This document shows, piece by piece, positions 34,834-61,970 of a stretch of DNA of 64,000 bases. Location: IMG/VR virus record IMGVR_UViG_3300018424_007835, positions 45,718-109,717 of that record; one strand, 5' to 3'. Positions within the stretch are counted from its first letter, which is position 1. The number at the start of each line of letters is the position of its first letter. The translations under genes were made by a program, and so were the position numbers. The notes below the pieces were generated by a model. That model ran no database searches. It saw only the letters and a list, made by a program, of their open reading frames with translations, and was not told the origin of the DNA. Origin of the DNA: a virus.

Positions 34834-36681
34834 ATGCCTACTCGTCCCGTAGTAAATTATCAAACAACAACCGGCGACACTTCTTTTGGATCGGATGCCA
34901 ATTACAATGACAAGGGCCGTAAAGATACCACTTCGTGGTATGGTTTTGATTCGAATAATACTCTAGTTTTACGGGACAGCTCTCTGGAAATTCAGACACA
35001 TTTATTAGAACGGGGTATGGTTAATGACGCTATGACGCTTGTGACAGCGACGGCCACACACAGTGACCCGAATTGGAACGGGTCCCAGTCTACTGGTGTA
35101 GGGTTAAAAGCTGATCCGTTGGTTGTTCCAGGTGCTGAGTCTGGGCATTATCATCACTTTATTGGTAACATTTTCACAAAAGATGATGATGTAAATAATT
35201 TGTTGGCCTCTAATAATAGTCAGGTGCGCTACGAAGAAGGTAGTGGGGTTCACCGGTATATTGACAATCCTCGGGGTGGGTGGCCCGCTAGAACGTTGCA
35301 TCAAAATTCGCCGACCGACCCGGTTGAAGTGGTGGGACATTTTCCTGGGGTTTGGTTCCCTACTCCGTTTTGGAGGGGGAAACCGGTAAAGATTGCTGAC
35401 GCTAAGTCAGTCTATTACACCAGGCAGAGGTTTTATCCTGAAGATGCCAGATTGGTGGCGCTTCCTTCCGGCGCAGGATGGGTGTCGTTTAACATGCACC
35501 TCGCCCATTCTGGAGGGCCGGGCGGCTGGAGACTAAGTGTTCGGGGTCCTGATTGGTTTGATTTGGAGAACTTGCACTTTGGGCCATTTCCCAATCGACC
35601 GCCCGAGGAAGGTGGTGGGGCGTGGACGACGTTCCAACAGGATGTTGGTGGTGTGGGGTTTGGTAACACGAAGCCAAATAAGCCGACGGCGTTTTGGACT
35701 CCGCAGGTTCAAGCATATTTAGGATTTTTTTGGCCTAATGGTATTGGCCCTGATAACCCTGATTGGAATGACGAGCCTTTAAGCTACAAAGACGAAACTG
35801 GTACTAACCCGGGGCTCGGGTATGCGGCCGGGGTCAGGGGAGCCGCAGATAGTCGATGGACGTATGGTATGCCGAAGCAGATGTCGGGGATGCCCCGGGT
35901 TCCTTTTCATATGGATTACATTTCTGCTCATGGAAGTTCTTTTAATCAGTATGCCACAGTGCCCGCTAGATCAACAAAAAGGGATAAGATAACCATACAA
36001 AGACGTACATACCAAATTGTGCAGAATCCGTTGGGAAATACCATTCAATTTTCGGGTTACACTTCGCAATCTAGTATTCCTAATATAGACAATTTTATGC
36101 AAGACCTCATAGATAGGTCTTTAAACAATAATATTTTTGGTTTAGGGTCGTCGCACTCGACAGGTTTACATAAGTGGGAAGGCGTTATTGCTACAGGTAA
36201 TGCGGAAACTTTACCCCCCTCATCTATTCCAGAAGTGGACGAGGGGGAGGAGGAGGACGGTGATTTAGAGGCACCGCCATTGTCGGTTCGTATTCTACAG
36301 AAAAGCATAGACGGGTTAACAGTAAAGCTTGATTATGTGTTAAGCATTACGGTCCGTAGTCAAGTTCGCTTAGATTGGAATTTTGGTGACGGTAAAACAC
36401 AGAGTGTGGCTGATGGTTCTGGCACCATAGAACATACGTATGCCCAACTGGGCACCTATACTGTTAAGTTGACTGTAACAGATTTGAACGATGCAACTGT
36501 TACAACTTCAGATGAATTAACGATTGAGTTAAAACGGGCCCCTGCGTTGGTATCTAGTAGTGCGGGAGGTGGCCTAGCCAATCCTGTAGCATTGCTGATG
36601 GCTGTGGCTACTGGCGGGGTTGATGGACAGCGAAAGGCAGTTCAGTTTGGCAGCGATGCAGATGCAACCGCACATATGTAG
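34834..36681 (+). CDS. DUF1996-like protein with C-terminal PKD domain, tail-associated
   Basis: 615 residues. The N-terminal ~370 match the DUF1996 pattern: ADPLVVPGAESGHYHHFIGN, GVWFPTPFWRGKPVKIADAK with VYY, RLVALPSGAGWVSFNMHLAH, FWTPQVQAYLGFFW and VPFHMDYISAHG. A secreted paralogue lies at 60831. Residues ~495-575 (VRLDWNFGDGKTQSVADGSG, IEHTYAQLGTYTVKLTVTDL) form a PKD domain. An acidic linker (PEVDEGEEEDGDLEAPP) separates the two. There is no signal peptide, so it is most likely a virion part acting on the host surface. DUF1996 has no proven activity known to me. Confidence 0.72.
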   Translation: MPTRPVVNYQTTTGDTSFGSDANYNDKGRKDTTSWYGFDSNNTLVLRDSSLEIQTHLLERGMVNDAMTLVTATATHSDPNWNGSQSTGVGLKADPLVVPGAESGHYHHFIGNIFTKDDDVNNLLASNNSQVRYEEGSGVHRYIDNPRGGWPARTLHQNSPTDPVEVVGHFPGVWFPTPFWRGKPVKIADAKSVYYTRQRFYPEDARLVALPSGAGWVSFNMHLAHSGGPGGWRLSVRGPDWFDLENLHFGPFPNRPPEEGGGAWTTFQQDVGGVGFGNTKPNKPTAFWTPQVQAYLGFFWPNGIGPDNPDWNDEPLSYKDETGTNPGLGYAAGVRGAADSRWTYGMPKQMSGMPRVPFHMDYISAHGSSFNQYATVPARSTKRDKITIQRRTYQIVQNPLGNTIQFSGYTSQSSIPNIDNFMQDLIDRSLNNNIFGLGSSHSTGLHKWEGVIATGNAETLPPSSIPEVDEGEEEDGDLEAPPLSVRILQKSIDGLTVKLDYVLSITVRSQVRLDWNFGDGKTQSVADGSGTIEHTYAQLGTYTVKLTVTDLNDATVTTSDELTIELKRAPALVSSSAGGGLANPVALLMAVATGGVDGQRKAVQFGSDADATAHM

Positions 36682-36719
36682 TGTGTATCCTACTGTGGGG
36701 TAGTTAATATATTCACAAC

Positions 36720-36747
36720 TTGACATTTACCTGCCACGTGCTAGACT
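36720..36747 (+). promoter_or_regulatory. Promoter of the lysis genes
   Basis: TTGACA (36720-36725), 16 bases, TAGACT (36742-36747), a ~30-base leader, then GGAAGGGGA before ATG 36785. Confidence 0.7.
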
Positions 36748-36784
36748 AATTCAATGCTTCAAAAACATAGCGGAAGGGGACATT

Positions 36785-37162
36785 ATGTTTGCAGAGCTTG
36801 TAGTAGCCTGGATTTTAATGATGAACGCCAGAACTCCATGTGAGACCTCTGAGCAGTGTGAAACTTACATTCGCCCATACGTGGAGTTTGTTTTTGAAGA
36901 CCACCCGGTCACCACCGCTGAAGCTGCGGTACAAGTGGCGTGGTGCGAGTCTCGTTGGAAACCGTGGGCTAGAAATAGGCACAGTACAGCCACTGGCCTT
37001 TTTCAGTACCTGTACGGCACCTGGCACGCTGAAGCCCACTATTGGGGGTGGGATGAGTTGTCTGATCCGTCGCACAGGTTTGATCCCGTTCTGATGACGA
37101 ACCTGACTTATAAGGTTGTGGAGCGTGATAATGGTTGGCGGCAGTGGCAGTGTAAGCCTTAA
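36785..37162 (+). CDS. Lysozyme-like transglycosylase, small
   Basis: 125 residues. After a short hydrophobic N-terminus (MFAELVVAWILMM) comes a lysozyme-fold core: VQVAWCESRWKPWARNRHST, with Glu55 in the catalytic ES position, ATGLFQYLYGTWHAEAHYWG, then D...L...V. It cleaves peptidoglycan glycan strands and could work during lysis or, if packaged, entry. It lies just before the endolysin, so lysis is favoured. The hydrophobic start may be an export signal or a signal-arrest segment. Confidence 0.75.
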   Translation: MFAELVVAWILMMNARTPCETSEQCETYIRPYVEFVFEDHPVTTAEAAVQVAWCESRWKPWARNRHSTATGLFQYLYGTWHAEAHYWGWDELSDPSHRFDPVLMTNLTYKVVERDNGWRQWQCKP

Positions 37163-37231
37163 TTGCTGGCCACGCCTGTGCTTTTGGTGTAAACTATTAT
37201 TGAATATTGTTTATCCGAAAGGACTTTTTTG

Positions 37232-38236
37232 ATGGCTACTTACACCGGTTATGATCGCACTGCTCGTGCTAAGAGGGCGGGCATGGAAATGCTCGTTGAT
37301 CTTATTGAGGCGTATTTTGGTTTGTGGAATAATGGTACGCTTGTTGTGCGCAATATGCGTGGCAAGTCTAAGCCAAGTGTTCATTCGACCGGTAGGGCTG
37401 CTGATGTGTCGTGGCGGGGCGGCAACTATCGTGGTACTGGTAATTACGCTGATTGTGAGAAGCTGTGTGACTTTTTGACCGAGAATGCCGAGGAGCTTGG
37501 CATTGAGTTGCTGCTTGATTACTGGCCACGACCTCACGGGCGTGGGTGGAGGTGCGACCGGAATGCTTGGCGTACCTACACTAGCCATGCAATGAGTGGG
37601 TCGCCGGGTGGCGACTGGCTTCATTTCGAAATTAGCAATGAGCATGCGGATGACGCCCAGCATTATGTTGATGTTTTCCAGCGGCTGCTTGGTGATCCCC
37701 CGAAGGCGATTAAGACTCCCCCTGCAAGAAAGACTGCTCGCAAGCCTGCTGGTAAGGACCCTTGGTTGCAGGTGGGGTCGAAGGGAGATCAAGTCAAGGA
37801 AATTCAGGCCGTGGTTGGGGTTGAGGCGGATGGTGCTTTCGGTCCGCTTACCGAGGCGGCGGTGAAGAAGTGGCAGGCTGAGCACGATTTGTTTGTAGAC
37901 GGAATTGTCGGGCCCGATACGTACAAGGCTATGACTGATCCTAGCACTGCTGTGGTTGCGGATGATGGACCGTCTGCGGCAGACAAGGTAGAGGATAGGA
38001 CTGAGGCGGCTCCTACCCCCGCCCCGGCCCCTGCCCCCGAGTATCCTGGGCGCCCTATCCGCAATGGGTGGCGGGGCGATGTAGTGAAAGCCATTCAAGC
38101 TAAGGTTGGTGCTCAGCCGGTCGACGGGTTCTTTGGCCCCAAGACACACGGAGTTATTGTAAACTGGCAGACGGCCAATGGCCTACGTCAAGACGGTGTT
38201 GTCGGTCCGCTTACCTGGGCAAAGATGTTTGGGTAA
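37232..38236 (+). CDS. Endolysin: M15-type peptidase with two peptidoglycan-binding domains
   Basis: 334 residues from ATG 37232; GAAAGGA at 37216 fits this start better than the TTG just upstream. The N-terminal ~145 carry the zinc ligands of the M15/VanY family: His51 and Asp58 in VHSTGRAADV and His131 in GDWLHFEIS. A Lys/Pro/Ala linker follows, then PG_binding_1 domains at ~170-228 (VGSKGDQVKEIQAVVGVEAD GAFGP) and ~275-334 (GDVVKAIQAKVGAQPVDGFF GPKT), joined by a Pro/Ala-rich linker (EAAPTPAPAPAPEYP). It should cut peptide cross-links of the wall. The modular layout is usual for Gram-positive hosts. Confidence 0.88.
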   Translation: MATYTGYDRTARAKRAGMEMLVDLIEAYFGLWNNGTLVVRNMRGKSKPSVHSTGRAADVSWRGGNYRGTGNYADCEKLCDFLTENAEELGIELLLDYWPRPHGRGWRCDRNAWRTYTSHAMSGSPGGDWLHFEISNEHADDAQHYVDVFQRLLGDPPKAIKTPPARKTARKPAGKDPWLQVGSKGDQVKEIQAVVGVEADGAFGPLTEAAVKKWQAEHDLFVDGIVGPDTYKAMTDPSTAVVADDGPSAADKVEDRTEAAPTPAPAPAPEYPGRPIRNGWRGDVVKAIQAKVGAQPVDGFFGPKTHGVIVNWQTANGLRQDGVVGPLTWAKMFG

Positions 38237-45359: not shown

Positions 45360-45665
45360 GTGGCTGAGTATGTGCTTTCGCATCCTTTTAGAATTGACAA
45401 TGATAACGGTCGCCCTGCGACTGTCTATTCGGATTCTGCAACTTACAAAGCTGAGCAGATTAATTCTATCATTCGCACAGAAAAAGATGAGCGGCCTCTG
45501 TTGGACCGTTTTGGAATGAATGATCCCACGTTCCATAGGTTTGACGCAGCAGAGTTTTTGTCGACGGTTCGACGTTTTTACGATCAGGAAGAGTTGCTTA
45601 TCACGGATATAAAAGTTAAGTCTGTCAGTGGCGTGGACGCTGATGTGTTGATTGAGTTTGAGTGA
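45360..45665 (+). CDS. Baseplate wedge protein, gp25/gpW-like
   Basis: 101 residues. LSHPFRIDNDNGRPATVYSD, TYKAEQINSIIRTEKDERPL LDRFGMND, then FLSTVRRFYDQEELLITDIK. The FR.D..G......A.......I..T..-ER.L...FG pattern is that of gp25-like wedge proteins, which start sheath assembly in contractile tails. It is followed by baseplate J, its usual neighbour. GTG 45360 follows TTGGAGG. Confidence 0.82.
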   Translation: MAEYVLSHPFRIDNDNGRPATVYSDSATYKAEQINSIIRTEKDERPLLDRFGMNDPTFHRFDAAEFLSTVRRFYDQEELLITDIKVKSVSGVDADVLIEFE

Positions 45666-45672
45666 GGTTGCT

Positions 45673-50200: not shown

Positions 50201-50667
50201 CTGTGCTGCTACAGTGTCGGCGTTTCTGGACAGCCTCCACTGGCACGGAATTCGACATTCTCCGCATCGAAACCAACGAAGTGACCCCTAAAGGGTTGCG
50301 CATATTTTATGATGGCCCGGCGATTAAAGCCACATTCTACGACGGCACAAATACCGAAACTGTGTCATGGACCGAATCCCCCGCCTACGGCTCCTGGCAA
50401 TGGTTCGTGGTTCGTAGAGACCCAACTAACGGGTTAAGTCTGGTGCCACCGGGGTCGTACTCTCCTTCAAATCTAGTGTCTGGTTCTGAGATTACGGCAT
50501 CCGCCACAGCCACTTCTCTTTTCAGTTCACCTACTTCTGTGATGAAGTTGGGCGAGGACGACGGTGCCAGCGCATGGAATGCACGGTTTGGTTTGTCAGA
50601 GTTTGTGTACTTTGACAGAAAACTTACAGATGCTGAAATAGAGCTTTTGAGCACGCAAATATCCTAG
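47281..50667 (+). CDS. Tail protein I-like baseplate protein fused to a LamG/concanavalin-like C-terminus
   Basis: 1128 residues. It follows baseplate J, where P2-type gpI is expected, and contains a gpI-like segment at ~205-290 (SDMPNFMQVDDKNINDLLGA, FTESLYRPVDLVAAEALEFE, ALGYLPWLASVTGT). The N-terminal 200 are a jelly-roll-like beta domain. Further beta modules follow, with a fibre-like region (YWYYGTAAPSIAGDTLTIDG) and a final ~190-residue LamG-like domain (PKIEVYSDFSVLLQCRRFW, WQWFVVRRDPTNGLSL, FGLSEFVYFDRKLTDAEIEL). The C-terminus probably binds a host glycan. Third-position base use becomes C-rich from ~49900, so the tail end may be exchanged. Confidence 0.72.
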   Translation: MPLRNFNLLSANQRSFGTDAGSDLGGWALRSGAATVGRLLDAGAYNTYIPGDEFSDVYVNNLLFVRPTSASADVVIESPFLTVTPGNVYLVSMAIGSLLPKTATIRMEFYGTASTPAASAAEGSAVASAAISTNSIILPFQRIYNSNETLSDGVWSLSTEPLAKVTITFESPAASGDFFTIFDPFVTEDDLALSGNLSGLAYSDMPNFMQVDDKNINDLLGARGAQALSFPLKRFTESLYRPVDLVAAEALEFEYVRPIAGTESKSKLTDPDTAALGYLPWLASVTGTTLLTIAGGGISPWAALEQNDEDRSGDPGEWADIEAVGNWKDLEGVGDGFFDNIKVFRDLIRTGFTGINSGRPDTIASFLQTVVGAAEFTPVIKNNDRDNPFLVEVLVDPATDLGGTFIKDYTDFGLSAGANSSTTGSVVDSGRGSLDFSKLVYPATHSNNDATGAVTYGRSFVSDADGFARHLRLVPGAAGAASAVPELGGGIADAHYTAGAAYVYGNTGPTSYGSVTASVTAVPFGGSGNTLSLGGVQTEYELIFVLSDITLPTASIDAAGSGGNTPADWLYREKRLLACGTDSGGNGNDWAVYLVSGSTGAADNQTRLMLIDGYNNVGATNYAVSDPIDFGVISSRGDVVLRVKRSAVESASATATFYAQSSIYDDWDTHQVGEVVFQPTSAAVVAPDTNGAIQILGELNSNDNWADAVPVSCSVKRFMFFKELISFAGESATSSAAHAYFNGGSATNFGVYSYTPTLDIDFSGRGIYDSSFTLSDYVDGRRSGLTNTVTVTVNEAATNGLDVLAFRNTGTDYWYYGTAAPSIAGDTLTIDGLSNSTAYRVVPTIVNTGTGATSTSDFTDFTTDGSGVLTLSASAAYVGVSALYGGITASAIEVQPSGGGTALARFLPTTIAASATSGPDSINSNNTWTLTRAFPASSIAYAPSQIINRDFLHVYEGGPTFNNCPKIEVYSDFSVLLQCRRFWTASTGTEFDILRIETNEVTPKGLRIFYDGPAIKATFYDGTNTETVSWTESPAYGSWQWFVVRRDPTNGLSLVPPGSYSPSNLVSGSEITASATATSLFSSPTSVMKLGEDDGASAWNARFGLSEFVYFDRKLTDAEIELLSTQIS

Positions 50668-50691
50668 TAGAATAGTCGTTAGGAGGTTATT

Positions 50692-52770
50692 ATGACTGTT
50701 AGCACAACTTCCCGCCTGGGAGTAACAACTTGGGACGCAGGATCCGACCCCTTTACTCGTGCCCAGATGAATGACAGCCACATCAACTTGGAAGCTAGGG
50801 CGGCAGGTTTTAATCAAGACGCCACCCGTCCATCTGCTGGTGCTGGTTTCACTGGGTTTTTCCATTTCAATAATGGGATTCTTACGTATTGTGATGGTGT
50901 CAACTGGTATGACCTCGTTGCAGTTGGCTCGACCGTTGTTGATCTTACCGCTTCGGCTGGAACCGTTGGCGTAAGTTCTGATTTCGCCCGTTCTGACCAT
51001 CGCCACGGTATCGCTACTGATGCGATTGCCGAAAATATGATTCAAAATAACGCTGTTACCCGTGATAAGATTAGTAATAATAGTGTTGATCTTACTAAGC
51101 TTGTGGATTCGGCTAGCGGTTATGCTGTTTTGGGTAAGACGGGTTCGGGTTCTGGGGATTTTGCTGAGATTACTGCTGGGGCTAATAGTGTTTTGCGGCG
51201 TTCTGGGTCAGGTGATCTTTCGTTTGGCACGTTGTCGACTGCGCATATTGGGAACGGGCAGATTACTACGGATAAGATCGGCTCCCAGCAGGTGACGATT
51301 GATAAAATGGCAGCTAATTCTGTGGGCACTGACCAGTATGTGGATGCGTCTATTAAGGCTGAACATTTTGCCCCAGGCGCTGTTAGCGGGGCGTCGGTGG
51401 GGGAGGATTCGATTGATTCGATTAATATCCAGACTGGGGCTATTGATACTCGCCATATTGCCGACAATCAGGTGACTGTTGGCAAAATTCAACAGGTTGC
51501 GGCTCACAGTATTTTGGCACGAGTTGGTACTTCTACAGGTAACCTTTCAGCGTTGGTTGCTGGGACTGATAGTGTTTTGCGGCGTGACGGTTCAGGTAAC
51601 CTGGCATTCGGCACAATTGATGGTGGGCATATTGGCATTGACAGTATTGACAGTCAGCATTATGCTGCTGGTTCTATTGATAGGGAGCACTTGGCTCCCG
51701 ACATTATTGATGGCACTAAGATCGCAAATGATGTTATTAACTCTGAACATTATGTTGCAGGGTCTATTGATAGGGAGCACTTGGCTCCCGACATTATTGA
51801 TGGCACTAAGATCGCAAATGATGTTATTAACTCTGAACATTATGTTGCAGGGTCAATTGACGCCGAGCATCTAAGCAACGCTTTATACAGTAGTGGCACA
51901 TGGCAAGGGGCACTGTCTGGTAACGCCGCTACGGCAAGCCGGTGGTCGAACTACCGCACAATCACGTTAGGTGGTGATCTCACTGGTTCTGTGCAGATCA
52001 GGGGCGACGCTAATGTGACCCTGACTGCCACGGTTGCGGCTAATAGTGTAGCCTTGGGCACTGACACCACGGGCAATTATATGGCCGGTGTTTCTGCGGG
52101 TACGGGTGTTTCTGTTAGCCATACCCCGGGGGAGGGGTCCACAGCGACAATTTCTATCGGGCAGTCCGTTGCCACGACCAGCAACGTGACGTTCAATCAG
52201 GTCCAAAGCAACAGATACGATATCGGTTCGCAAGCGACCTCGGAGACGTGGATTACTCGGACCGTCGGTAATGATTTGTCGTTCCGCTTTGAGAGTACCA
52301 ACTTGGCCCAGTGGCATAAAACCGTTGCCACAAATAATAATAGCGTTTTGTCATCCACCGCCCATGCGTTCCAGTTCCACAACCACTTGATTCCCTTCGT
52401 TACCTCAACGTCAGGGACCACCGGTCGGCTCCTTGGGGACAACAACAGGGCTTGGAACCGTCTCGTCTCAAAGAACGGCAGCTACCTGTCCTCTGACGCC
52501 ACATTGAAAGACATTGAGGGCACCGCACCCGGCATGGACTTCGTGCGGATGCTGACCGGGTACGAATGGTCGTGGAAACTTGACGACGGCGTTTCTTTCT
52601 GGGGGCCTACCGCCCAGGACATCCAAGCGGCCGTTGATGCTTCGGGCTCTGACGCTGAGATTGTGACCGGCGAAGAGGGCAACCTAACGGTCCGCATGGA
52701 GTCCCTTTGGGGTCCGGTTATCAATGCTTTGAAAGAGCTAGAAGAGCGTATTGTTGCCCTCGGGGGGTGA
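50692..52770 (+). CDS. Tail fibre with tandem repeats and S74-type chaperone end
   Basis: 692 residues. The start is MTVSTTSRLGVTTWDAGSDP with a Trp-containing head domain, then a shaft of ...I..DSI.S.H..AGSIDREHL-type repeats (~110-390). Two 30-residue units are identical at DNA level. The C-terminal ~100 residues contain YLSSDATLKDIEGTAPGMDF, with the Ser-x4-Lys pair of S74 domains, EWSWKLDDGVSFWGPTAQDI and a final helix LKELEERIVALGG. AGGAGGT precedes ATG 50692; TAGAAT (50668) may be a -10. The 3' part is C-rich at third positions. Confidence 0.8.
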   Translation: MTVSTTSRLGVTTWDAGSDPFTRAQMNDSHINLEARAAGFNQDATRPSAGAGFTGFFHFNNGILTYCDGVNWYDLVAVGSTVVDLTASAGTVGVSSDFARSDHRHGIATDAIAENMIQNNAVTRDKISNNSVDLTKLVDSASGYAVLGKTGSGSGDFAEITAGANSVLRRSGSGDLSFGTLSTAHIGNGQITTDKIGSQQVTIDKMAANSVGTDQYVDASIKAEHFAPGAVSGASVGEDSIDSINIQTGAIDTRHIADNQVTVGKIQQVAAHSILARVGTSTGNLSALVAGTDSVLRRDGSGNLAFGTIDGGHIGIDSIDSQHYAAGSIDREHLAPDIIDGTKIANDVINSEHYVAGSIDREHLAPDIIDGTKIANDVINSEHYVAGSIDAEHLSNALYSSGTWQGALSGNAATASRWSNYRTITLGGDLTGSVQIRGDANVTLTATVAANSVALGTDTTGNYMAGVSAGTGVSVSHTPGEGSTATISIGQSVATTSNVTFNQVQSNRYDIGSQATSETWITRTVGNDLSFRFESTNLAQWHKTVATNNNSVLSSTAHAFQFHNHLIPFVTSTSGTTGRLLGDNNRAWNRLVSKNGSYLSSDATLKDIEGTAPGMDFVRMLTGYEWSWKLDDGVSFWGPTAQDIQAAVDASGSDAEIVTGEEGNLTVRMESLWGPVINALKELEERIVALGG
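51673..51852 (+). repeat. Exact 90-bp tandem duplication in a fibre gene
   Basis: Bases 51673-51762 and 51763-51852 are identical. Each encodes 30 residues beginning SIDREHLAPDIIDGTKIAND. The frame is kept, so shaft length can vary by unit number. A diverged third start (TCAATTGACGCC) follows. Confidence 0.95.
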
Positions 52771-52787
52771 CCAGACTGGGAGGGGTT

Positions 52788-53093
52788 ATGTGGAGCAACT
52801 TCATTGGCATGACCCTACCCGGCCTAGTCGGGTCCACAGTCACTATCCTAGCAATCGTCCTATCCACCCGGCTCCGACACAAAAAACTCGACCTAGAAAT
52901 AGATGCCGCACAAGATAGCGTTTGGTTAGACCTAGTCAAACAAAGTCGGGTAGAATATGCACTACAGAGGAAAGAAAACAACAGACTGCGATACATAATA
53001 CACCACCTACAAGAGGAGGTAAGCGACCTAGAAAAAAAGAACGCAGAACTGTTAAGACAAATAACTTCCCTAAAACATAACAACCCAGACTAG
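52788..53093 (+). CDS. Membrane-anchored coiled-coil protein, 101 aa
   Basis: ATG 52788 follows GGGAGGGG; the upstream part of the frame overlaps the fibre gene and is not used. One TM segment (MTLPGLVGSTVTILAIVLST, ~8-27) is followed by a basic stretch (RLRHKK) and a long coiled coil (RKENNRLRYIIHHLQEEVSD LEKKNAELLRQITSL). The topology fits a spanin-like, holin-accessory or inner-membrane lysis regulator, but no family is recognised. Codons are C- and A-rich at the third position, in sharp contrast to most of the window. Confidence 0.62.
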   Translation: MWSNFIGMTLPGLVGSTVTILAIVLSTRLRHKKLDLEIDAAQDSVWLDLVKQSRVEYALQRKENNRLRYIIHHLQEEVSDLEKKNAELLRQITSLKHNNPD

Positions 53094-53101
53094 GAGACAC
53101 A

Positions 53102-53410
53102 ATGACCGATCCCGTACCCTTCAGCGAACGAGACGACGACGACTCAATAGATGACCTCCTAGCAATGATAAACGATGCCATCGTCACAACCGACAGCCCC
53201 GAAGAAATGATCCAAGAAGTCATCGGAGATGTCCTCCAAAACCACGAAGCCGCCGGGGTGCTCGGTAACTTTGTGTTTATTGGAGAAGTCGTGGGGAACG
53301 ACGGCGAGGTTCGTTTGATGGTCGCCACGTCTGAAAATTTGCCTGATTGGATTGCTAGGGGCATGCTGATGACTGCTGAAGAGTTTATTATGGGCGGAAT
53401 GTTGGAATGA
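53102..53410 (+). CDS. Hypothetical acidic protein, 102 aa
   Basis: Not recognised. It is strongly acidic at the start (SERDDDDSIDDLLAMINDAI, VTTDSPEEMIQEVIGDVLQN), then a small beta part (FVFIGEVVGNDGEVRLMVAT) and a C-terminal helix. The two halves differ in base use: C/A-rich third positions to about base 53265 (as in the previous gene), T/G-rich afterwards, which suggests a recombination joint inside the gene. The stop overlaps the next ATG (ATGA). Confidence 0.6.
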   Translation: MTDPVPFSERDDDDSIDDLLAMINDAIVTTDSPEEMIQEVIGDVLQNHEAAGVLGNFVFIGEVVGNDGEVRLMVATSENLPDWIARGMLMTAEEFIMGGMLE

Positions 53411-53748
53411 CCGCTGGACGGTACGACATTTTGTGTGTGGCCGACGAAGATTTAGAAGTCGAGTGGACTGTTTACAATCCTGATGGTGAGCTTGCCAATC
53501 TAAACTTGTGGCAGTCACGTATGCAGGTTCGGGAGACAGTTGCCGCAGAAACCGTAACATTAGACTGCTCTACCACCAATGGTAGAATCGTGCATAGTGT
53601 GGCAGATGGTACAATAACATTAAGCCTGTCTTCTTCCACCATTGCTGAAATAAGCTCGGGCGATTACGTGTACGATTTGGAACTTTACACCACCACGGGG
53701 GCTGATAGGGTGTTGCGTTTGGTGGAGGGATTTTTTAAGGTGAGCTAA
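53407..53748 (+). CDS. Ig/BppU-like beta protein, paralogue of 44401
   Basis: 113 residues with the same motif order as the protein at 44401: MTAGRYDILCVADEDLEVEW, NPDGELANLNLWQSRMQVRE, TTNGRIVHSVADGTITLSLS, YDLELYTTTGADRVLRLVEG F. It precedes a fibre-type gene by one base. A role as a small baseplate anchor or adaptor for the following fibres is likely but inferred. Confidence 0.65.
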   Translation: MTAGRYDILCVADEDLEVEWTVYNPDGELANLNLWQSRMQVRETVAAETVTLDCSTTNGRIVHSVADGTITLSLSSSTIAEISSGDYVYDLELYTTTGADRVLRLVEGFFKVS

Positions 53749-53749
53749 A

Positions 53750-54286
53750 ATGTCTGATTACACCGTCACCATTCAGGATGTTGTTAATGCTATCACCGTA
53801 ACCGAGTTTGACGGCAATCATGTGGCTGAAGGATCTGTTTCCGAGTATACGGTCACCGTGGAGGACATTGTTAACGCTATTTCTGTTGCGGAGCAGCAGG
53901 GCAATAAAGTTACGGTTGTTGCTTCCACGTTTATTGGTGATGATGGTACGGCGTCTAAGCTGTTTTATTCGTCGGGTTCCCCTTCTGATTCTGTTGGTGG
54001 TGTGGGGGATTTTTATATTGATGTTTCGATTGGTAAGTTGTGGGGGCCTAAGGGGGCTTCTGGGTGGTCATCTTCTGAGCTTCCTCTTATTCCTAAAAGG
54101 TTTGTGTTTTCGCAGGGGTTGCCGTCTTCTTCTTGGAATGTTGATCATACTTTGGATGGTTTTCCTTCTGTAACTGTTGTGGATTCTGCAGGTACTGTGG
54201 TGATTGGTGATGTAATATATAATAGCAGGAGTAACCTTACTATTAATTTTTCTGCCGCCTTTTCGGGTAAGGCATATTTAACTTAA
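53750..54286 (+). CDS. Tail protein with internal repeat and 'GDFYID' module, 178 aa
   Basis: The N-terminus holds a duplicated ~30-residue unit (YTVTIQDVVNAITVTEFDGN and YTVTVEDIVNAISVAEQQGN). A module like those of the fibres follows (GSPSDSVGGVGDFYIDVSIG KLWGP). The end (SSSWNVDHTLDGFPSVTVVD, SAGTVVIGDVIYNSRSNLTI) is a beta domain that resembles the C-terminus of the next gene (VTHNFGTKDVIVQVYD, DTVVGDVVRTSAEVVTVTL). It is probably a short tail fibre or capping protein. Confidence 0.65.
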   Translation: MSDYTVTIQDVVNAITVTEFDGNHVAEGSVSEYTVTVEDIVNAISVAEQQGNKVTVVASTFIGDDGTASKLFYSSGSPSDSVGGVGDFYIDVSIGKLWGPKGASGWSSSELPLIPKRFVFSQGLPSSSWNVDHTLDGFPSVTVVDSAGTVVIGDVIYNSRSNLTINFSAAFSGKAYLT

Positions 54287-54299
54287 TAAGGAGTAGACA

Positions 54300-56111
54300 G
54301 TGTCTCAGAAATTTTTAACAGCTATAGACCTTAACCAAAACGAGTTGCAGAATGCTGTAATTCAGAATTTGGGCACTCCCCCGGGCAGCCCGGTAAAGGG
54401 TCAGCTTTACTTTGATAGCGATGCCGGTGATAATAAACTGTATGTTTGGGATGGCACTTCCTGGGTTAATCTTCAGGACACTGGTGCGGGCACTCTCACT
54501 ATCTCCGACGGCTCCAATTCCGACGGTCTTACAGTAGGTACTGACACCCTTACGTTTGATAGTGGTACGGGTGTTACTACCGCAGTCACAGACAATCAAG
54601 TCTCTTTTTCTATTGGTCAGGACGTTGGAACTAGCGCTGATGTAACTTTCAATACAGTTACTGCTAGCCTTACTGGTAACGCTGATACCGCCACTGAGGC
54701 AACAAACATTACTGCGGTTGCCAATAACGCTACTGATGAGACTGTTTACCTGACATTTGTTGACGGCGCTACCGGCACTCAAGGCATTGAGACAGACACC
54801 GGACTTACCTACAACCCGTCGACTGGTGTACTCACCACTACTTCCGTTACCGGTGACCTGACCGGCGATGTGACCGGCAACGCCGATACTGCTACGGAGC
54901 TTGCCACGGCCCGCACAATTGCTTTGAGCGGTGACGTTAACGCCACTGGCGTAGGCTTCGATGGTAGTGGCGACATTACGCTCACTACCACAATTGCTAA
55001 CGACAGCGTTGACCTTGGTACGCACACGACAGGCGACTACGTTGAAAGTCTTGTTGCAGGTACTGGCGTTACTCTTAGTAATAACTCAGGCGAGGGGGCT
55101 ACACCTACAGTTGCTATTGGTCAGGCCGTTGGTACGAGTGATAACGTAACATTCAATGATCTTACCGTTGCTGGTAACCTTACTGTTAGCGGCACGACGA
55201 CAACGATTGATACTGCTACGCTTTCTGTTGAAGACCCGCTGATTGTTCTCGCTAGCAACAACAATACTACTGACGCTGTTGACATTGGTTTCTACGGCTT
55301 GTACGATTCAAGCGGTTCTCAAGACCTGTACGCCGGTCTTTTCCGTGACGCTGATGACGGCAAGTTCCGCTTGTTCAAAGATTCTCAGGCTGCTCCGTCG
55401 ACTACGGTCGACACGGGTGCGACTGGCTACGCTGTTGCTACGCTTGTTGCTGCCCTAGAGGGCAATGCTGATACTGCGACGGCCCTTGAAACCGCACGCA
55501 CTATTGGTGGTGTTTCGTTCGATGGTACTGCGAACATTGACCTTCCCGGCGTCAACACGGAAGGCAATCAAGATACTACAGGTAATGCTGCTACTGCGAC
55601 GGCCCTTGAAACCGCACGCACTATCAACGGTGTTTCGTTTGACGGTACGGCCGACATTACGGTTGCTGCGGCTGCTGGAACACTAACTGGTACTGAACTT
55701 AACTCTACTGTTGTAACGTCTTCGCTTACCACGGTAGGAACTATCGATACTGGTACGTGGAACGGTAGCACTATTGCTGTTGCTTATGGTGGTACTGGTG
55801 CCACTACCGCTTCAGCGGCTAGGAATAACTTGGCGGTAGGGGACGGTACTGACATTACGGGCACTACGCTTGCCCGAATTGCCGCTGTAGACTGCGCCGC
55901 CGACTCCAGTGGAGTCAGCACGACAACTGTCACCCATAACTTTGGGACCAAGGACGTTATTGTGCAGGTGTACGATAGCTCCAATGGGGACACAGTTGTT
56001 GGTGACGTGGTTCGGACTTCGGCGGAGGTTGTTACAGTAACCTTGAACGGTACAATTGGGGCGGGGGACTACCGCATCGTTGTGACAGCCGCAGGGGACG
56101 GCACCGCCTAA
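54300..56111 (+). CDS. Tail fibre protein with repeated GNADTAT shaft
   Basis: 603 residues from GTG 54300 (AAGGAG upstream). The head is AIDLNQNELQNAVIQNLGTP, SPVKGQLYFDSDAGDNKLYV WDGTSWVNL, the common phage fibre anchor. The shaft has repeated LTGNADTATEAT, GNADTATALETARTI and related units. The C-terminal ~75 residues (VTHNFGTKDVIVQVYDSSNG, VTLNGTIGAGDYRIVV) form the same receptor-side beta domain as the preceding protein. No S74 domain. A long gap with hairpin, terminator and promoter follows. Confidence 0.78.
   Translation: MSQKFLTAIDLNQNELQNAVIQNLGTPPGSPVKGQLYFDSDAGDNKLYVWDGTSWVNLQDTGAGTLTISDGSNSDGLTVGTDTLTFDSGTGVTTAVTDNQVSFSIGQDVGTSADVTFNTVTASLTGNADTATEATNITAVANNATDETVYLTFVDGATGTQGIETDTGLTYNPSTGVLTTTSVTGDLTGDVTGNADTATELATARTIALSGDVNATGVGFDGSGDITLTTTIANDSVDLGTHTTGDYVESLVAGTGVTLSNNSGEGATPTVAIGQAVGTSDNVTFNDLTVAGNLTVSGTTTTIDTATLSVEDPLIVLASNNNTTDAVDIGFYGLYDSSGSQDLYAGLFRDADDGKFRLFKDSQAAPSTTVDTGATGYAVATLVAALEGNADTATALETARTIGGVSFDGTANIDLPGVNTEGNQDTTGNAATATALETARTINGVSFDGTADITVAAAAGTLTGTELNSTVVTSSLTTVGTIDTGTWNGSTIAVAYGGTGATTASAARNNLAVGDGTDITGTTLARIAAVDCAADSSGVSTTTVTHNFGTKDVIVQVYDSSNGDTVVGDVVRTSAEVVTVTLNGTIGAGDYRIVVTAAGDGTA
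55472..55624 (+). repeat. Direct repeat, 120-bp period, in the fibre shaft
   Basis: A 33-base block (55472-55504) recurs exactly at 55592-55624. It encodes part of TATALETARTI in both copies; the sequence between is diverged, so it is an older shaft-unit duplication than that at 51673. Confidence 0.8.
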
Positions 56112-56119
56112 GTAAAGAT

Positions 56120-56141
56120 GTTACGGTAAACAATCCGTAAC
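56120..56141 (+). other. Small hairpin in intergenic gap
   Basis: GTTACGG (56120-56126) and CCGTAAC (56135-56141), a 7-bp stem with an 8-base loop, no T-run. It begins 9 bases after the fibre stop; possibly an RNA processing or stability element. The rest of 56142-56200 shows nothing clear. Confidence 0.4.
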
Positions 56142-56200
56142 GCTACCGGTTCACGATAGTGGGCAAGGTAGTTACGCCGTGCAGGCGAGAAATACCCGAC

Positions 56201-56240
56201 AAGGGGGTGGGGTTTGTTCATAGACAGACCCCACCCCTTT
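56201..56240 (+). terminator. Long-stem terminator
   Basis: AAGGGGGTGGGGTTTG (56201-56216) pairs with CAGACCCCACCCCTTT (56225-56240) over 16 bp with two G-T wobbles. The T-run is short, but the stem is very stable. Confidence 0.75.
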
Positions 56241-56250
56241 GTGGTATAAT
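56221..56250 (+). promoter_or_regulatory. Promoter overlapping the terminator
   Basis: TAGACA (56221-56226) in the terminator loop and 3' arm, 18 bases, TATAAT (56245-56250); leader of about 50 bases to GTG 56306. Confidence 0.68.
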
Positions 56251-56305
56251 ACGGGTACACTTACCTTGAGGGGCAAGTGGGCAGACAAGAAAGCTGGTTG
56301 AGGCC

Positions 56306-58105
56306 GTGGCTCAAAAATTTAAAACTAGTATCACCATTGATGATGCGACCAGTGCAGCGTCACAAGCGGTTGCAATCAATGTAACCGGTGACACCCAGAA
56401 CAGGTTAACTATTGATGCTGGTGGTAAAATTTCTTGGGGGCCAGGAGGAACAACAGCCGTAGATACCGTACTGTATCGGTCTGCTGCGGATACGCTAAAA
56501 ACGGACGATGCTTTTACCGCTACCTCGCTAGCGGTAACGGGCGCTTTCACATTACCCACGTCTGATGGTAGCGCTAATCAGGTTATGGTGACGAATGGGT
56601 CGGGTACTGTTACTTGGGCTAATCAGTCTGGCGGTGGTGGGGGTGGCGGTGTCACGGTTAGTGATACTCCGCCGTCTAGCCCTAGTTCGGGTGATTTGTG
56701 GTTTGAATCGGATACCGGTGTAACGTTTGTTTATTACGATAGTTTTTGGGTTGAGGTGGGGTCGTCTAATAGTGTGGCTGTTGGAGGGGACGGCGCTATT
56801 CAGTATGCTTCTAGTGGGGGGTTGGATGCTGATGACACTAATTTTGTATGGGATGCCACGAACACCCGGTTGGGTATTGGAACGTCTACCCCTAGTGATT
56901 TGCTGGAATTATCTGGCGGTAACTTGATTAGTGATGGGCATGTCACGGCTCAATCTGGAGGCGCTGATGGGGGCATTGTTCTTGGGCAGGCGTTTGGTTC
57001 AGGTTACGTCGGGTTGCGTACTGCTGGAATGTCTGAAACGTCTAGTGGGGAGTATGTCCTCATTTCTGATGGGACTAACAGTTTTTTGGGTGCGGGTACG
57101 GGGGGCACTACATATATTCGTGGTGGGGCAAATAGCACCGCATATGAACTGTCAATTAGCAATAGCGTGGCACAAATAAAAGGTAATTTGACAGTTGTCG
57201 ATAATGGTACCTCAGGGACCGGTAAGGTGCTGTTACCTTCGGCAGGGGGCGACGGCGGCCTTGCCTTAGAATCTTGGAATGCAAGCGGGTTCTTTGGGGC
57301 TATTGCAACAGCAAACATGACAAGCACCGAATACATGATGATTTCGGCAGGCACACATACTTATATTTCGGCAGCGACTGGCTCTAATGTTTATATTCGG
57401 GCTGGGGCAAACTCTGGAACTCATGAACTCTGGCTTGAACAATCATCAGGTAAAACTTATATTGAAACAACTAATGGGGTGTTCATAGACAATGTGCTTA
57501 ACATGGAGCCGCTCACTGCTACCGAAGGGGGAGAAATAGCCCTGCTCCACGGCACATCTGGGCTGCAAGACGCTGTTTTGGATAATTACCACAGCGGTAG
57601 CACGTATTTTAGAGTGGTTGGTGATTCAACCGTCATGTTCCGAGTACGTCTTGATACTCGCCTGTATGCGTTGGGCGGCACGGGACGGGATGTTTACATT
57701 AACTCTAATGACACGCTGGTGTACAATACGTCAACTCTTGATTTAAAGGAAAACATTGTTACAGTCACTGCTGAGAGTGTGGATGATCAGGGTCGCTCTG
57801 TGTTGGAACGGGCCCGCATGCTTGAGGCTCTTGAATATGAGTATTCGGCGGCCGCCGCTGACGCTGTTCCAGGTAATCGTTACATAGGTTTGGCCGCTGA
57901 GCATGTGCATGATTTGTTCCCAACTGCCACCACCGATTACTTAGATTACGACGAAGATGAGAACGGTGACCCAATTGAAGGAACGGGGCGACCAGTTGGG
58001 TGGGATAACCGGGCGATGATTGGTGTTCTTTGGGCGTTGTGGCGTGATTCTGACACAAAACTACAAGATGCTTTGAATAGAATTTCAGTATTGGAGGCCG
58101 GATAA
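56306..58105 (+). CDS. Tail fibre with S74-type chaperone end
   Basis: 599 residues from GTG 56306, with GAGG five bases upstream. It contains an N-terminal anchor (MAQKFKTSITIDDATSAASQ), a Gly-rich hinge (SGGGGGGGV, ~110), one GDLWFESDTGVTFVYY module, NTRLGIGTSTPSDLLEL and repeated beta units (YVLISDGTNSFLGAGTGGTT, YMMISAGTHTYISAATGSN). The C-terminus has TSTLDLKENI (Ser-x4-Lys), MLEALEYEYS, RYIGLAAEHVHDLFP and a final coiled coil, as in S74 chaperones. The stop overlaps the next ATG (TAATG), starting a run of three such couplings. Confidence 0.8.
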   Translation: MAQKFKTSITIDDATSAASQAVAINVTGDTQNRLTIDAGGKISWGPGGTTAVDTVLYRSAADTLKTDDAFTATSLAVTGAFTLPTSDGSANQVMVTNGSGTVTWANQSGGGGGGGVTVSDTPPSSPSSGDLWFESDTGVTFVYYDSFWVEVGSSNSVAVGGDGAIQYASSGGLDADDTNFVWDATNTRLGIGTSTPSDLLELSGGNLISDGHVTAQSGGADGGIVLGQAFGSGYVGLRTAGMSETSSGEYVLISDGTNSFLGAGTGGTTYIRGGANSTAYELSISNSVAQIKGNLTVVDNGTSGTGKVLLPSAGGDGGLALESWNASGFFGAIATANMTSTEYMMISAGTHTYISAATGSNVYIRAGANSGTHELWLEQSSGKTYIETTNGVFIDNVLNMEPLTATEGGEIALLHGTSGLQDAVLDNYHSGSTYFRVVGDSTVMFRVRLDTRLYALGGTGRDVYINSNDTLVYNTSTLDLKENIVTVTAESVDDQGRSVLERARMLEALEYEYSAAAADAVPGNRYIGLAAEHVHDLFPTATTDYLDYDEDENGDPIEGTGRPVGWDNRAMIGVLWALWRDSDTKLQDALNRISVLEAG

Positions 58106-58335
58106 TGGCTATGGATTTTCCTGATTCGCCCGCAGTTAATGATACTTTCACGGTGGGCTCCCGCCAATGGAAATATGACGGAACCACGTGGTTGCTTGTA
58201 GGTACCCCTCGCAACAACTTTGGTACAACTGAGTCTGATGTTACTTCTCGCCCGAACTATGATACAGTTATTTTTATTGGATCTACAGAGCCTACTGTTG
58301 GGCAGTCGGGTGACGTGTGGATTGATAACTCATAA
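58105..58335 (+). CDS. Minimal fibre adaptor protein, 76 aa
   Basis: It consists of the adaptor (MAMDFPDSPAVNDTFTVGSR QWKYDGTTW) joined to the end motif (VIFIGSTEPTVGQSGDVWID). These are the first and last parts of the 354-residue fibre at 28955, without the middle modules, and both genes are followed by an overlapping gene. It may be an adaptor that links the next gene's product to the baseplate. It overlaps both neighbours by one base (TAATG). Confidence 0.7.
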   Translation: MAMDFPDSPAVNDTFTVGSRQWKYDGTTWLLVGTPRNNFGTTESDVTSRPNYDTVIFIGSTEPTVGQSGDVWIDNS

Positions 58336-60050
58336 TGCGACAGACAAAGTGGACATACCTTACAGTCGATTCAACTACATCAACGTCGTTTGAAATTGTT
58401 GGCAATACGTCTGCTGGGGTTATTGCAGATTCGTGGGGAAGCGGAAATTCACTTTGGGCTGCGGTCATTTCATTAGAAGTCGGCATGCACGACAACGCTG
58501 CTGAGGCGTCATTCCAGTGTGGCCTTATAACTGATCCTACAGGCACTCCAACGTTTTACCCGCAGACGCCGACGTTTGACCACAGACCTCCAAGTGATAA
58601 TTCGTATACGACTGCTTCTCCTACTAATGATACGGGTAGGTGGCGTAGTTATGTTCGCATGTTTAGGTTTGCGGCGGATCCTTTCGGCAATGATACTGAT
58701 AATAATAATTTTGGTGTTGGGGTTCAGTTTAAGACGAGTAATTCTGCGGATCTTGCTTATGTTAGAGATTTGAACATTGTTTGCTTTAAGCTTGGGCCTA
58801 ATGATATTTGGTTGAGTGAAAGTAGTGTTTTTGGGGTGAGCAGTACAGGGAGTGGTATAGATGTGTACGGCGATTCTTACACGCTTTACCCCAACCAGTC
58901 TCCTTATTCATTAAACCCTGGGGCATATTTGGCGTTTGCTGAGTGTACTCGCACCCATACAAATAATAATAGGTCAGCGTGTAGGGTTCGTTTTAGGCCC
59001 GCTGGCTCGGATACGGGTGCTGTTGTGTTGGGTCATGGCGAGGATACGTTTCAAACAAATAGTTTAACTATAGGTCAGAATGGGATGGGTTTTGTAAATT
59101 TGGATGATTCTGATGATGAAATTGTGTTTGAGATTGGGAATGATAATGCTGGTGGGACGGTAACGTTAGAAACTGCGGCAGCTTTACTTATTGATATTGG
59201 CCGCCCGCAGGATTTGTCAGCGTCGGTTATTGATGTGCAGTCGTATTCAACTGGTCTTTCTATTATGGTAGGCGGCACATATACTCGTGTGTATTTACCA
59301 TCAGACCATCCTTTTGAGCAAGGCGACTTTTTCTATTTGAATCCGGGCGTGTCTGGGACTGCAAGTGAGGCCTTAAACCGTGAAGCACTTATTGGAGTTT
59401 TTCAAGTCCAGGGCACAGCTGTGCAGGGAGGAACTTATCATTTTATTGAGTTCAACACCCCCGCAGGGACCGGGTACACTGGGCAACTGCTTAATATTTT
59501 CAATGCGACTGATGCGATTGTGCGCACGATTCGTCCGTTAGTTGAGACACGAGAGGATACCCTGACCACTAACAGTCAGTCTTTTGTTTCTTATGACACG
59601 TTGGATTGGAATGATGACAGTTTAGACAACTTTTTCTGGTTGCTTGGATACACGGCAACGTCCAGCTTTGCGGGAACAGGCGGCTCGGGGGGGACGAGAA
59701 TTGTTTTGAGAAACACCCCTTCGGGAGGGTCGGTGGATCAGTTGTGCAATGCGGCCGGTGTCATTACAAACACAAGTAATCAGCAATTGACTTCTACTGG
59801 TTTTACTTTTAGGTATGGGGGGTCCGTTTCCAATACGCTAGAAATAGGGGTGGAGTCATACAATACGGGCCAGGCCAGTATACATGATTCATCTATATTT
59901 GCAATACCTTTCTTTTTCCCAGGCAATACCGTGTTAAAGTACGACGGGAGCGATTGGAATGTGACCGGGGTGCTTAAACACAGCACAGATTGGGAAACAT
60001 ACGAATGGGCTAAGGTATACGTACACGATGGGACAGATTGGGGTAATTAA
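58335..60050 (+). CDS. Receptor-binding-type tail protein, 571 aa
   Basis: No family is recognised. It is beta-rich and Asn/Ser/Thr/Gly-rich: TYLTVDSTTSTSFEIVGNTS, YVRMFRFAADPFGNDTDNNN, YLAFAECTRTHTNNNRSACR, TLEIGVESYNTGQASIHDSS, ending KYDGSDWNVTGVLKHSTDWE and KVYVHDGTDWGN. The Trp-rich 'YDGSDW..' ending is common in phage tail tips. Position after the adaptor gene and translational coupling suggest that it is carried by it. Confidence 0.6.
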   Translation: MRQTKWTYLTVDSTTSTSFEIVGNTSAGVIADSWGSGNSLWAAVISLEVGMHDNAAEASFQCGLITDPTGTPTFYPQTPTFDHRPPSDNSYTTASPTNDTGRWRSYVRMFRFAADPFGNDTDNNNFGVGVQFKTSNSADLAYVRDLNIVCFKLGPNDIWLSESSVFGVSSTGSGIDVYGDSYTLYPNQSPYSLNPGAYLAFAECTRTHTNNNRSACRVRFRPAGSDTGAVVLGHGEDTFQTNSLTIGQNGMGFVNLDDSDDEIVFEIGNDNAGGTVTLETAAALLIDIGRPQDLSASVIDVQSYSTGLSIMVGGTYTRVYLPSDHPFEQGDFFYLNPGVSGTASEALNREALIGVFQVQGTAVQGGTYHFIEFNTPAGTGYTGQLLNIFNATDAIVRTIRPLVETREDTLTTNSQSFVSYDTLDWNDDSLDNFFWLLGYTATSSFAGTGGSGGTRIVLRNTPSGGSVDQLCNAAGVITNTSNQQLTSTGFTFRYGGSVSNTLEIGVESYNTGQASIHDSSIFAIPFFFPGNTVLKYDGSDWNVTGVLKHSTDWETYEWAKVYVHDGTDWGN

Positions 60051-60475: not shown

Positions 60476-60488
60476 AGAGTAGCACACA

Positions 60489-60770
60489 ATGAGATATGTA
60501 TTTTTTAATTTAGACGTTGCCCAGCCCGACTCATTTTTAACAATAAATGGTGACGGGACATGGTCAGCGGAGCATACTGGGTACCGAGGCACGGTTACTC
60601 ATGATTTTGACGCCATGCTTGCGTGGATGGGAGATGACCCACAGCCCACGACTATTGAAGATTTCATCAAGGATGGGCTGCATAGATCCACCTCTGCAGT
60701 GTCTATTGAAACTGATGAGGGCATGATGGTGCAGTATGAGAAGCCAGACGGATTTGTCCCAGTGGATTAA
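60489..60770 (+). CDS. Hypothetical protein, 93 aa
   Basis: Not recognised. It reads MRYVFFNLDVAQPDSFLTIN, DGTWSAEHTGYRGTVTHDFD, AMLAWMGDDPQPTTIEDFIK; acidic and soluble. It starts 13 bases after the pentapeptide gene and is the last gene of the second fibre cassette. Confidence 0.6.
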   Translation: MRYVFFNLDVAQPDSFLTINGDGTWSAEHTGYRGTVTHDFDAMLAWMGDDPQPTTIEDFIKDGLHRSTSAVSIETDEGMMVQYEKPDGFVPVD

Positions 60771-60830
60771 CAACTGTAGGGCTAGTGGTCATCTGTTTAC
60801 TGCTAAACTATTTATAACAGGAGGTATGTT

Positions 60831-61970
60831 ATGACTAGTTCTATGAAAGTTGTTGTTGGTCTTATTGTTGGTGCTATGCTTTCTACGGCTGTTGCCACAG
60901 CCATGACCGACACTGATCGGGAAGCTGTTCAGACAGCATTAAGCCATGTGCAAGAAGCCGAGGCCATTTTGGAGGACATCCTGGCGCAACCCACGGATAC
61001 CGTTACTCCTGTGCCTACCGTGGTCACTTCGCCGCCGACGACCACTGACCCTCCAGTTAGTGGGGTGTACACGCCGTTGCCATTAACTTTGGCTGATTTT
61101 CCCAGCGATGAAGGTTATCACGTTGTGCCATTCCACCCTGACGCCTCTGGGGTGCAGATACGGTATCTCACTGGGGATGGCCAGAGCCCAGCGTTTGCTC
61201 TGCGTCTACCCGTGGCAGGTTCAGGGTTTGTCGATCCGCTGCTAGAGTCCTACAATCCAGATGGGCACGAACACACGTTTTTGGGTGTTGTGCCAACGTA
61301 CAACACTCCCGTAGCCTACTGGAATCAGCCAGGATGGGATGAGGCCGCCCCTGTACCATACATTCAAGACGACAACGGGCAGCTTGTTGCTGAAACGCCT
61401 GGCGTATGGATGCCCACGATGTTTGTCAATAATCAACGTGTGCGGTTGAACAGTGTGATCCCGGTGTATTACGAGTGCCATCGGACAACGGTTGCCCCTG
61501 GGCGAAGGGCGTATGCCTTACCTAATGGTGCAGGTTTTGTCACGGAGCAGCATCTGATTAAAGTGGTTGGGGACGCTTGGCGAATTACCTTTTTTGGCCC
61601 AATAGGGTTCCACGAATCTATTTCGACAAATCGTCTAGAATCTGCTACAGCGAATCGTGACCAGCTCTGGTTCCAAAGTGACGGACCGCTGCCCCCTGAA
61701 TCCGAGGGCTGGTATGCCACCCCGCAGGTTGAGGTGTATTGGCAGACCCGAGTTCCTTCTGATGTGGACTTCCCACGGCTTGTGCGATTTGGTAGCCCTA
61801 CCAATACTACAGTTACCGCTCACATGGATTATGTGTCGGCGGGCACTCCGCTTGGGAATAGCACGGTGACACAAATTCTTATTGACTGGGCGTGCAATCA
61901 GCCTGAGCCTAGCCCTTACTTTGTTGATGGGCGTCTGCGGGTTTTGGCGGTACAATTCCGCAATCAGTAG
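60831..61970 (+). CDS. Secreted DUF1996-like protein
   Basis: 379 residues. A signal peptide (MKVVVGLIVGAMLSTAVATA) is followed by a helix and a Pro/Thr linker (VTPVPTVVTSPPTTTDPP). The rest is homologous to the tail protein at 34834: FVDPLLESYNPDGHEHTFLG, GVWMPTMFVNNQRVRLNSVI PVYY, RAYALPNGAGFVTEQHL, AWRITFFGP, YATPQVEVYW, HMDYVSAGTP. The His pairs (GHEH, HMDY) are kept and could bind metal. It would be exported by the infected cell. AGGAGGT (60820-60826) precedes ATG. DUF1996 has no assigned reaction known to me. Confidence 0.75.
   Translation: MTSSMKVVVGLIVGAMLSTAVATAMTDTDREAVQTALSHVQEAEAILEDILAQPTDTVTPVPTVVTSPPTTTDPPVSGVYTPLPLTLADFPSDEGYHVVPFHPDASGVQIRYLTGDGQSPAFALRLPVAGSGFVDPLLESYNPDGHEHTFLGVVPTYNTPVAYWNQPGWDEAAPVPYIQDDNGQLVAETPGVWMPTMFVNNQRVRLNSVIPVYYECHRTTVAPGRRAYALPNGAGFVTEQHLIKVVGDAWRITFFGPIGFHESISTNRLESATANRDQLWFQSDGPLPPESEGWYATPQVEVYWQTRVPSDVDFPRLVRFGSPTNTTVTAHMDYVSAGTPLGNSTVTQILIDWACNQPEPSPYFVDGRLRVLAVQFRNQ

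What the first reader, a model, noticed from the sequence alone, without database searches (positions are those of the whole stretch)
34834..61970. Two DUF1996-like proteins in one phage: one tail-associated with PKD, one secreted
The proteins at 34834 and 60831 share at least six collinear blocks, including paired His motifs (GHYHH/GHEH and HMDY). One lies among fibres and has a PKD domain; the other has a signal peptide and Pro/Thr linker. The phage would bring one copy to the outside of a new host and have another exported from the infected one. Such a matched pair suggests acting on, or blocking, the same surface ligand, for example receptor destruction or superinfection exclusion.
Basis: partly seen in the sequence, partly recalled or inferred. 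Interest (0 to 1): 0.72.

Follow-up and report, generated by a model that had tools for sequence, protein, structure and literature searches.

The report
Phage with tail-side and exported DUF1996
This uncultured actinobacterial phage carries two distantly related copies of an uncharacterised surface-protein domain (DUF1996), one placed among its tail-fibre genes and one made for export, so it probably touches or modifies the same host surface sugar both from the virus particle and from the infected cell; what the domain does chemically is still unknown.

Summary
P1 (34834-36681, 615 aa) and P2 (60831-61970, 379 aa) are true homologues: BLASTP E 1e-9 in a direct comparison, Smith-Waterman score 15 SD above shuffles. 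They share collinear blocks DPL, GHxH.F.G, PGVWxPT, VYY, LPxGAG, TPQV and HMDY. P1 has a PKD domain and no signal peptide; P2 has a signal peptide and a Pro/Thr linker. "DUF1996-like" is also right, but only remotely. Pfam is below its cut-off; profile-profile comparison gives 94-95% probability against at most 4.7% for column shuffles. All non-cysteine family-invariant residues survive (Ile as Leu); all the conserved cysteines and the CWDG motif are gone. The phage is an actinobacterial-type myovirus.

New here: intact DUF1996 genes occur in several unrelated phage lineages, one copy per contig. Every one examined has a signal peptide; many sit beside tail or lysis genes, and one is fused to a GDSL esterase. 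The exported form is therefore the usual phage form. The two-copy arrangement, with one export-less PKD copy, was seen only here.

The likeliest role is binding or modifying a host surface glycan. Receptor destruction versus superinfection exclusion cannot be decided. A confident canonical DUF1996 model matches nothing in PDB or BFVD, so no enzyme class or metal site can be claimed.

The parts
34834..36681 (+). P1: 615-aa protein without signal peptide or cysteine; divergent DUF1996 domain (about residues 90-370) and PKD domain (490-563); last gene of the first fibre cluster, directly upstream of the transglycosylase and endolysin genes
   Evidence: ORF; Pfam PKD_4 E 1e-11, DUF1996 E 0.08; profile tests; no signal peptide; no cysteine
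35113..35154 (+). DPLVVPGAESGHYH block of P1 (head motif D-x4-P-x5-HxH of DUF1996)
   Evidence: formula in PMC4738358
35908..35919 (+). HMDY block of P1 (tail motif HxD of DUF1996)
36301..36522 (+). PKD domain of P1
   Evidence: Pfam PKD_4 E 9.8e-12, residues 490-563; collagenase PKD structures
60831..61970 (+). P2: 379-aa protein with signal peptide (about residues 1-24), helix (30-51), Pro/Thr linker (54-85) and divergent DUF1996 domain (about 130-345); follows the second fibre cluster
   Evidence: ORF; hydrophobicity; AF2 helices 3-26 and 30-51, rest low confidence; homology
31791..34820 (+). Two paralogous fibre-type genes (31791-33269, 33321-34820) immediately upstream of P1
   Evidence: BLASTP 29% over the whole length, E 3e-52; no PHROG match
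25808..30019 (+). Tail-fibre-like genes of the first fibre cluster (25808-28825, 28871-30019)
   Evidence: PHROGs tail fiber matches
36785..38236 (+). Lysis-type genes next to P1: transglycosylase-like (36785-37162) and endolysin with two peptidoglycan-binding repeats (37229-38236)
   Evidence: Pfam, PHROGs
45652..60050 (+). Second tail/fibre cluster upstream of P2
   Evidence: PHROGs tail matches for 45652, 50692, 54300, 56306

Best explanation
P1 and P2 are paralogues of a divergent, phage-specific branch of the DUF1996 superfamily in an actinobacterial myophage. P1, assembled in the cytoplasm without cysteines and carrying a PKD spacer, is most likely a tail-fibre or baseplate accessory protein that brings the domain to the host surface at adsorption. 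P2 is exported by the infected cell and puts the same domain, on a helix plus Pro/Thr stalk, on or outside the cell wall. Both most likely bind, or chemically trim (for example deacylate or cleave), the same class of host surface glycan through the conserved D / HxH / HxD site. Shown: homology, remote DUF1996 kinship, domain make-up, gene placement, recurrence of exported DUF1996 in phages. Inferred: virion location of P1, actual export of P2, a glycan as the target, and catalysis versus binding.
For: Pair homology and a P1+P2 clade with 98/96 support, nearest other row a phage DUF1996. Profile-profile match to DUF1996 at 94-95% against <=4.7% for 100 column shuffles; a home-made DUF1996 HMM ranks P1 and P2 first and second of 772 window ORFs and shuffles. 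The family-invariant non-cysteine residues (D35, H46, H48, W83, P85, Y103, P118, H244, D246 of A5) are kept in both; I37 is Leu. Surface and sugar link: exported DUF1996 genes in phages L132-L145, L140, L168, L147, L203, L206; DUF1996 fused to a GDSL hydrolase in a phage; DUF1996 fused to CBM96 in a Salmonella protein; CBM96 binds alginate (PMC9971899). Placement of P1 at the end of a fibre cluster. PKD domains are reported in receptor-binding proteins of Bacillus myophages (PMC11406892).
Against: No enzyme activity or ligand was found reported for any DUF1996; the one direct study puts fungal members in vacuoles (PMC4738358). The AF2 model of a canonical member matches no known fold. P1 lacks the N-terminal motif shared by its fibre-like neighbours, so its virion attachment is unproven. 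P1 and P2 lack all conserved cysteines and the FPxCWDG motif, so their function may have changed. The second half of the domain aligns only by short blocks.
Confidence: 0.45

Rival explanations
1. P2 (and exported phage DUF1996s in general) blocks or destroys the receptor on infected or lysed cells, giving superinfection exclusion or easier release of progeny, while P1 uses the same ligand for adsorption.
For: Same domain on both sides; exported form in unrelated phages, several beside tail and lysis genes. Phage T5 uses an exported lipoprotein, Llp, to mask its receptor (PMC9586334).
Against: Other phages have only the exported copy (one match per record), so pairing with a virion copy is not required. 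To my knowledge T5 Llp is not a homologue of the phage's receptor-binding protein, so homology is not how that known case works. Placement with late genes fits release better than exclusion. No functional data.
Confidence: 0.22
2. DUF1996 is a cell-envelope or lysis accessory enzyme: both copies help to open the host wall, P1 next to the transglycosylase and endolysin genes.
For: P1 lies about 100 bp upstream of a transglycosylase and an endolysin; DUF1996 sits directly upstream of a lysozyme-type gene in L137 and two genes from an endolysin in L168; GDSL fusion in L203.
Against: P1 has no export signal. L147 has its DUF1996 in a non-structural region. Bacterial genomes carry the same domain. 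A promoter-like site (36720-36747) lies between P1 and the lysis genes, though such sites are no more frequent than chance.
Confidence: 0.18
3. Both proteins are structural or decorative: P2 is not cleaved and secreted but is membrane-anchored or also incorporated into virions, and DUF1996 is merely a stable beta domain for presentation.
For: No confident structure for P2 beyond two N-terminal helices; P2 follows fibre genes; phage tails use many Ig/PKD-like presentation domains.
Against: Retention of all non-cysteine invariant residues, including the H/D set, in both divergent copies argues for a conserved site, not only a fold.
Confidence: 0.15

Closest known systems
DUF1996 (PF09362), canonical bacterial and fungal members
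   Same: Head motif D-x4-P-x5-HxHx3G in P1 (P2 lacks the Pro), W-x-P, YY, HxD, same order of blocks; profile-profile 94-95%
   Different: Below Pfam's cut-off; no conserved cysteines, no FPxCWDG, no GW after HxD; 30% identity to each other and less to the family
Exported DUF1996 proteins of other phage contigs (L132-L145 group, L140, L168, L147/MW202423, L203, L206)
   Same: Phage-encoded, signal peptide, often near tail or lysis genes (P2-like)
   Different: Intact cysteine-rich canonical domain; one copy per record tested; no PKD; L203 has a C-terminal GDSL hydrolase
PKD-bearing receptor-binding proteins of Bacillus myophages Deep-Blue and Vp4 (PMC11406892)
   Same: PKD domain in a tail-region protein of a myophage
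   Different: No DUF1996 reported there
Phage T5 lipoprotein Llp (receptor masking; PMC9586334)
   Same: Exported phage protein acting on the host surface, a functional analogue of what P2 might do
   Different: A lipoprotein with no known relation to DUF1996; function of P2 unproven

Membership tests
DUF1996 (PF09362) | Whole-protein score over Pfam's gathering cut-off (27 bits) | tested here: not met
   P1 13.4 bits (E 0.08), P2 no match
DUF1996 (PF09362) | Significant profile similarity over the domain | tested here: met
   hhalign 95.3%, E 2e-8; 94.3% against a shuffle maximum of 4.7%; P1 alone 68%, P2 alone 70%. Covers only the N-terminal half
DUF1996 (PF09362) | N-terminal formula D-X4-P-X5/6-H-X-H-X3-G (PMC4738358) | tested here: met
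   P1 exact (DPLVVPGAESGHYHHFIG); P2 has D and HxHx3G but not the Pro
DUF1996 (PF09362) | C-terminal HXDX3GW | tested here: inconclusive
   HxD kept in both; GW absent (HMDYISAHG, HMDYVSAG)
DUF1996 (PF09362) | Conserved cysteines and FPxCWDG / CP motifs | tested here: not met
   P1 has no Cys; P2 has two, at non-canonical places
Phage tail-fibre or receptor-binding protein (P1) | Match to a known fibre/RBP family | tested here: not met
   No PHROG match for P1; only context and PKD support this
Phage tail-fibre or receptor-binding protein (P1) | Presence in the virion | not testable with these tools
   Needs virion proteomics
Superinfection-exclusion / receptor-masking protein (P2) | Export and block of adsorption | not testable with these tools
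   Signal peptide by sequence only

The most novel reading that the evidence does not exclude
DUF1996 is a recurrent, so far unreported phage surface-glycan module, normally exported by the infected cell. In this phage lineage it was duplicated, lost its disulfides and was also placed on the particle, so that one domain serves adsorption on the virion and receptor removal or masking from the cell.
Probability: 0.25. Interest if true: 0.75.

Novelty: new variant of a known kind. Interest (0 to 1): 0.5.

Why it matters
DUF1996 is widespread in actinobacteria and fungi, but no activity for it and no solved structure were found here. Phage versions tied to tail genes, export signals and an esterase point to a testable role on surface glycans, and the natural virion/exported pair offers a clean way to ask whether phages use one domain for both attachment and receptor control.

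Tried and rejected
Single-sequence AF2 of P2 gave pLDDT 35, unusable. P1/P2 relatives in INPHARED, GTDB contigs, 397 Actinomycetota genomes with the pair profile and 296 genomes of one class with P2: none, apart from a PKD-only phage hit. The best plasmid hits with P1 all fell in the PKD region. No PDB sequence match to DUF1996 and no fold match to PDB or BFVD for the canonical model (pLDDT 89): rejected any enzyme-class or metal claim. Chance similarity rejected. 'Pair needed for function' rejected as a general rule, because other phage records carry one copy. NCBIfam adds nothing.

Full report
Setting. The window is bases 45718-109717 of a 109,717-base virus record. Its sheath and capsid are closest to those of Gordonia, Arthrobacter and Brevibacterium phages, and it encodes a tail sheath and tail tube: a myophage probably of an actinobacterium. 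The host itself is not known. The upstream 46 kb carries RecA-, primase- and terminase-type genes (identified by eye) and no third DUF1996 copy.

Observation. They are homologous beyond doubt: E 1e-9 in a direct comparison, E 8e-8 among all window ORFs, 15 SD above 1000 shuffles. Shared blocks, in order: DPL, GH(Y/E)H.F.G, PGVW(F/M)PT, VYY, ALP(S/N)GAG, TPQV, HMDY. The BLASTP alignment covers the first five blocks; the Smith-Waterman alignment runs to the TPQV block; HMDY is collinear but lies outside it.

DUF1996 kinship. Pfam gives only E 0.08 for P1 and nothing for P2. I therefore collected real DUF1996 proteins with a DNA pattern, confirmed the family in six genomes and ten proteins, and tested the pair against them. 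A 26-sequence HMM ranks P1 first (E 4e-4) and P2 second (E 0.04) of 772 targets. Pair-versus-family hhalign gives 95.3% and 94.3% with a second alignment, against a best of 4.7% in 100 column shuffles; each protein alone gives about 70%. P1 fits the published head formula D-X4-P-X5/6-HXHX3G exactly (PMC4738358). Of the 16 invariant columns of a 52-row family alignment, the nine non-cysteine columns other than I37 are kept in both proteins, I37 is Leu, and the six cysteine columns are all lost. The pair is thus a divergent branch: kin of DUF1996, not a full member by the cut-off or the cysteine pattern.

Two arrangements. P2 begins with a typical signal peptide, then a helix and a Pro/Thr linker. 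P1 has none, cannot be extended upstream, and carries a PKD domain. P1 closes a fibre cluster and precedes a transglycosylase and an endolysin; P2 follows the second tail/fibre cluster. Both genes were assembled on one contig in another sample too.

Other phages. DNA-pattern scans of IMG/VR found canonical DUF1996 genes in several unrelated phage lineages: L132-L145, L140, L168, and L203/L206/L210. INPHARED record MW202423 (L147) has one too. All those examined have a signal-peptide candidate. L168's gene overlaps a tail-fibre gene that is followed by an endolysin, and L137's is followed by a lysozyme-type gene. L203/L210 lie beside a virion structural gene. L203 is DUF1996 fused to a GDSL hydrolase (Pfam E 4e-17). 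The 15 canonical DUF1996 records tested have one copy each. P1 is the only export-less one found. PF09362 is present in 25 of 119 genomes sampled from the class of Desertimonas. In the tree P1+P2 form one clade (98/96), with L168 the nearest other row; the branches are very long, so only the pairing is taken from it.

Structure. A canonical DUF1996 models well (pLDDT 89, pTM 0.86, mostly beta) but has no significant match in PDB or BFVD (no hit at E <= 0.001, best listed TM about 0.2). No sequence relative is in the PDB. So no chemistry can be read off, and the metal-site idea stays open.

Mechanism. The most economical reading is a surface-glycan binding or modifying domain used from both sides: on the particle (P1, PKD as spacer; PKD occurs in receptor-binding proteins of Bacillus myophages, PMC11406892) and from the infected cell (P2). 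Sugar links are indirect: the GDSL fusion and a CBM96 fusion in a Salmonella protein (CBM96 binds alginate, PMC9971899). Because P2 has also lost the canonical disulfides, it may descend from a cytoplasm-assembled, P1-like ancestor; this is inference. Receptor destruction, masking and wall-opening remain rivals that these tools cannot separate.

Literature. 'DUF1996' occurs in 19 papers of the held library, and the only one that also mentions 'phage' is about a fungus. So phage DUF1996 appears unreported there; the library is not complete.

Noticed in passing
L203:1093-3132 (IMGVR_UViG_3300037193_002356): Phage protein joining a signal peptide, a DUF1996 domain and a C-terminal GDSL/SGNH hydrolase, next to a virion structural gene.
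   Followed up: yes
window 31791-33269 and 33321-34820: Two tandem paralogous fibre-type proteins (29% identity over their whole length) just upstream of P1.
   Followed up: partly
window 44401-44745 and 53407-53748: Second duplicated pair within the tail regions: two about 114-aa proteins, 38% identical; the first matches PHROG 1084 and an L-shaped tail fiber assembly family.
   Followed up: partly
window 24587-25774: Tail protein (PHROG 52) carrying a peptidoglycan-binding domain, probably a wall-contacting hub or baseplate part.
   Followed up: no
window 51658-51860: Near-identical repeat of about 90-base period inside a tail-fibre gene, seen as off-register matches with L004.
   Followed up: no
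window 34834-36681, residues 585-596 of P1: Short hydrophobic stretch (around PVALLMAVATGG) near the C-terminus of P1, of unknown use.
   Followed up: no
L148 (AFYI01000007.1, STM4309-like protein): Salmonella protein of unknown function is DUF1996 plus CBM96.
   Followed up: partly
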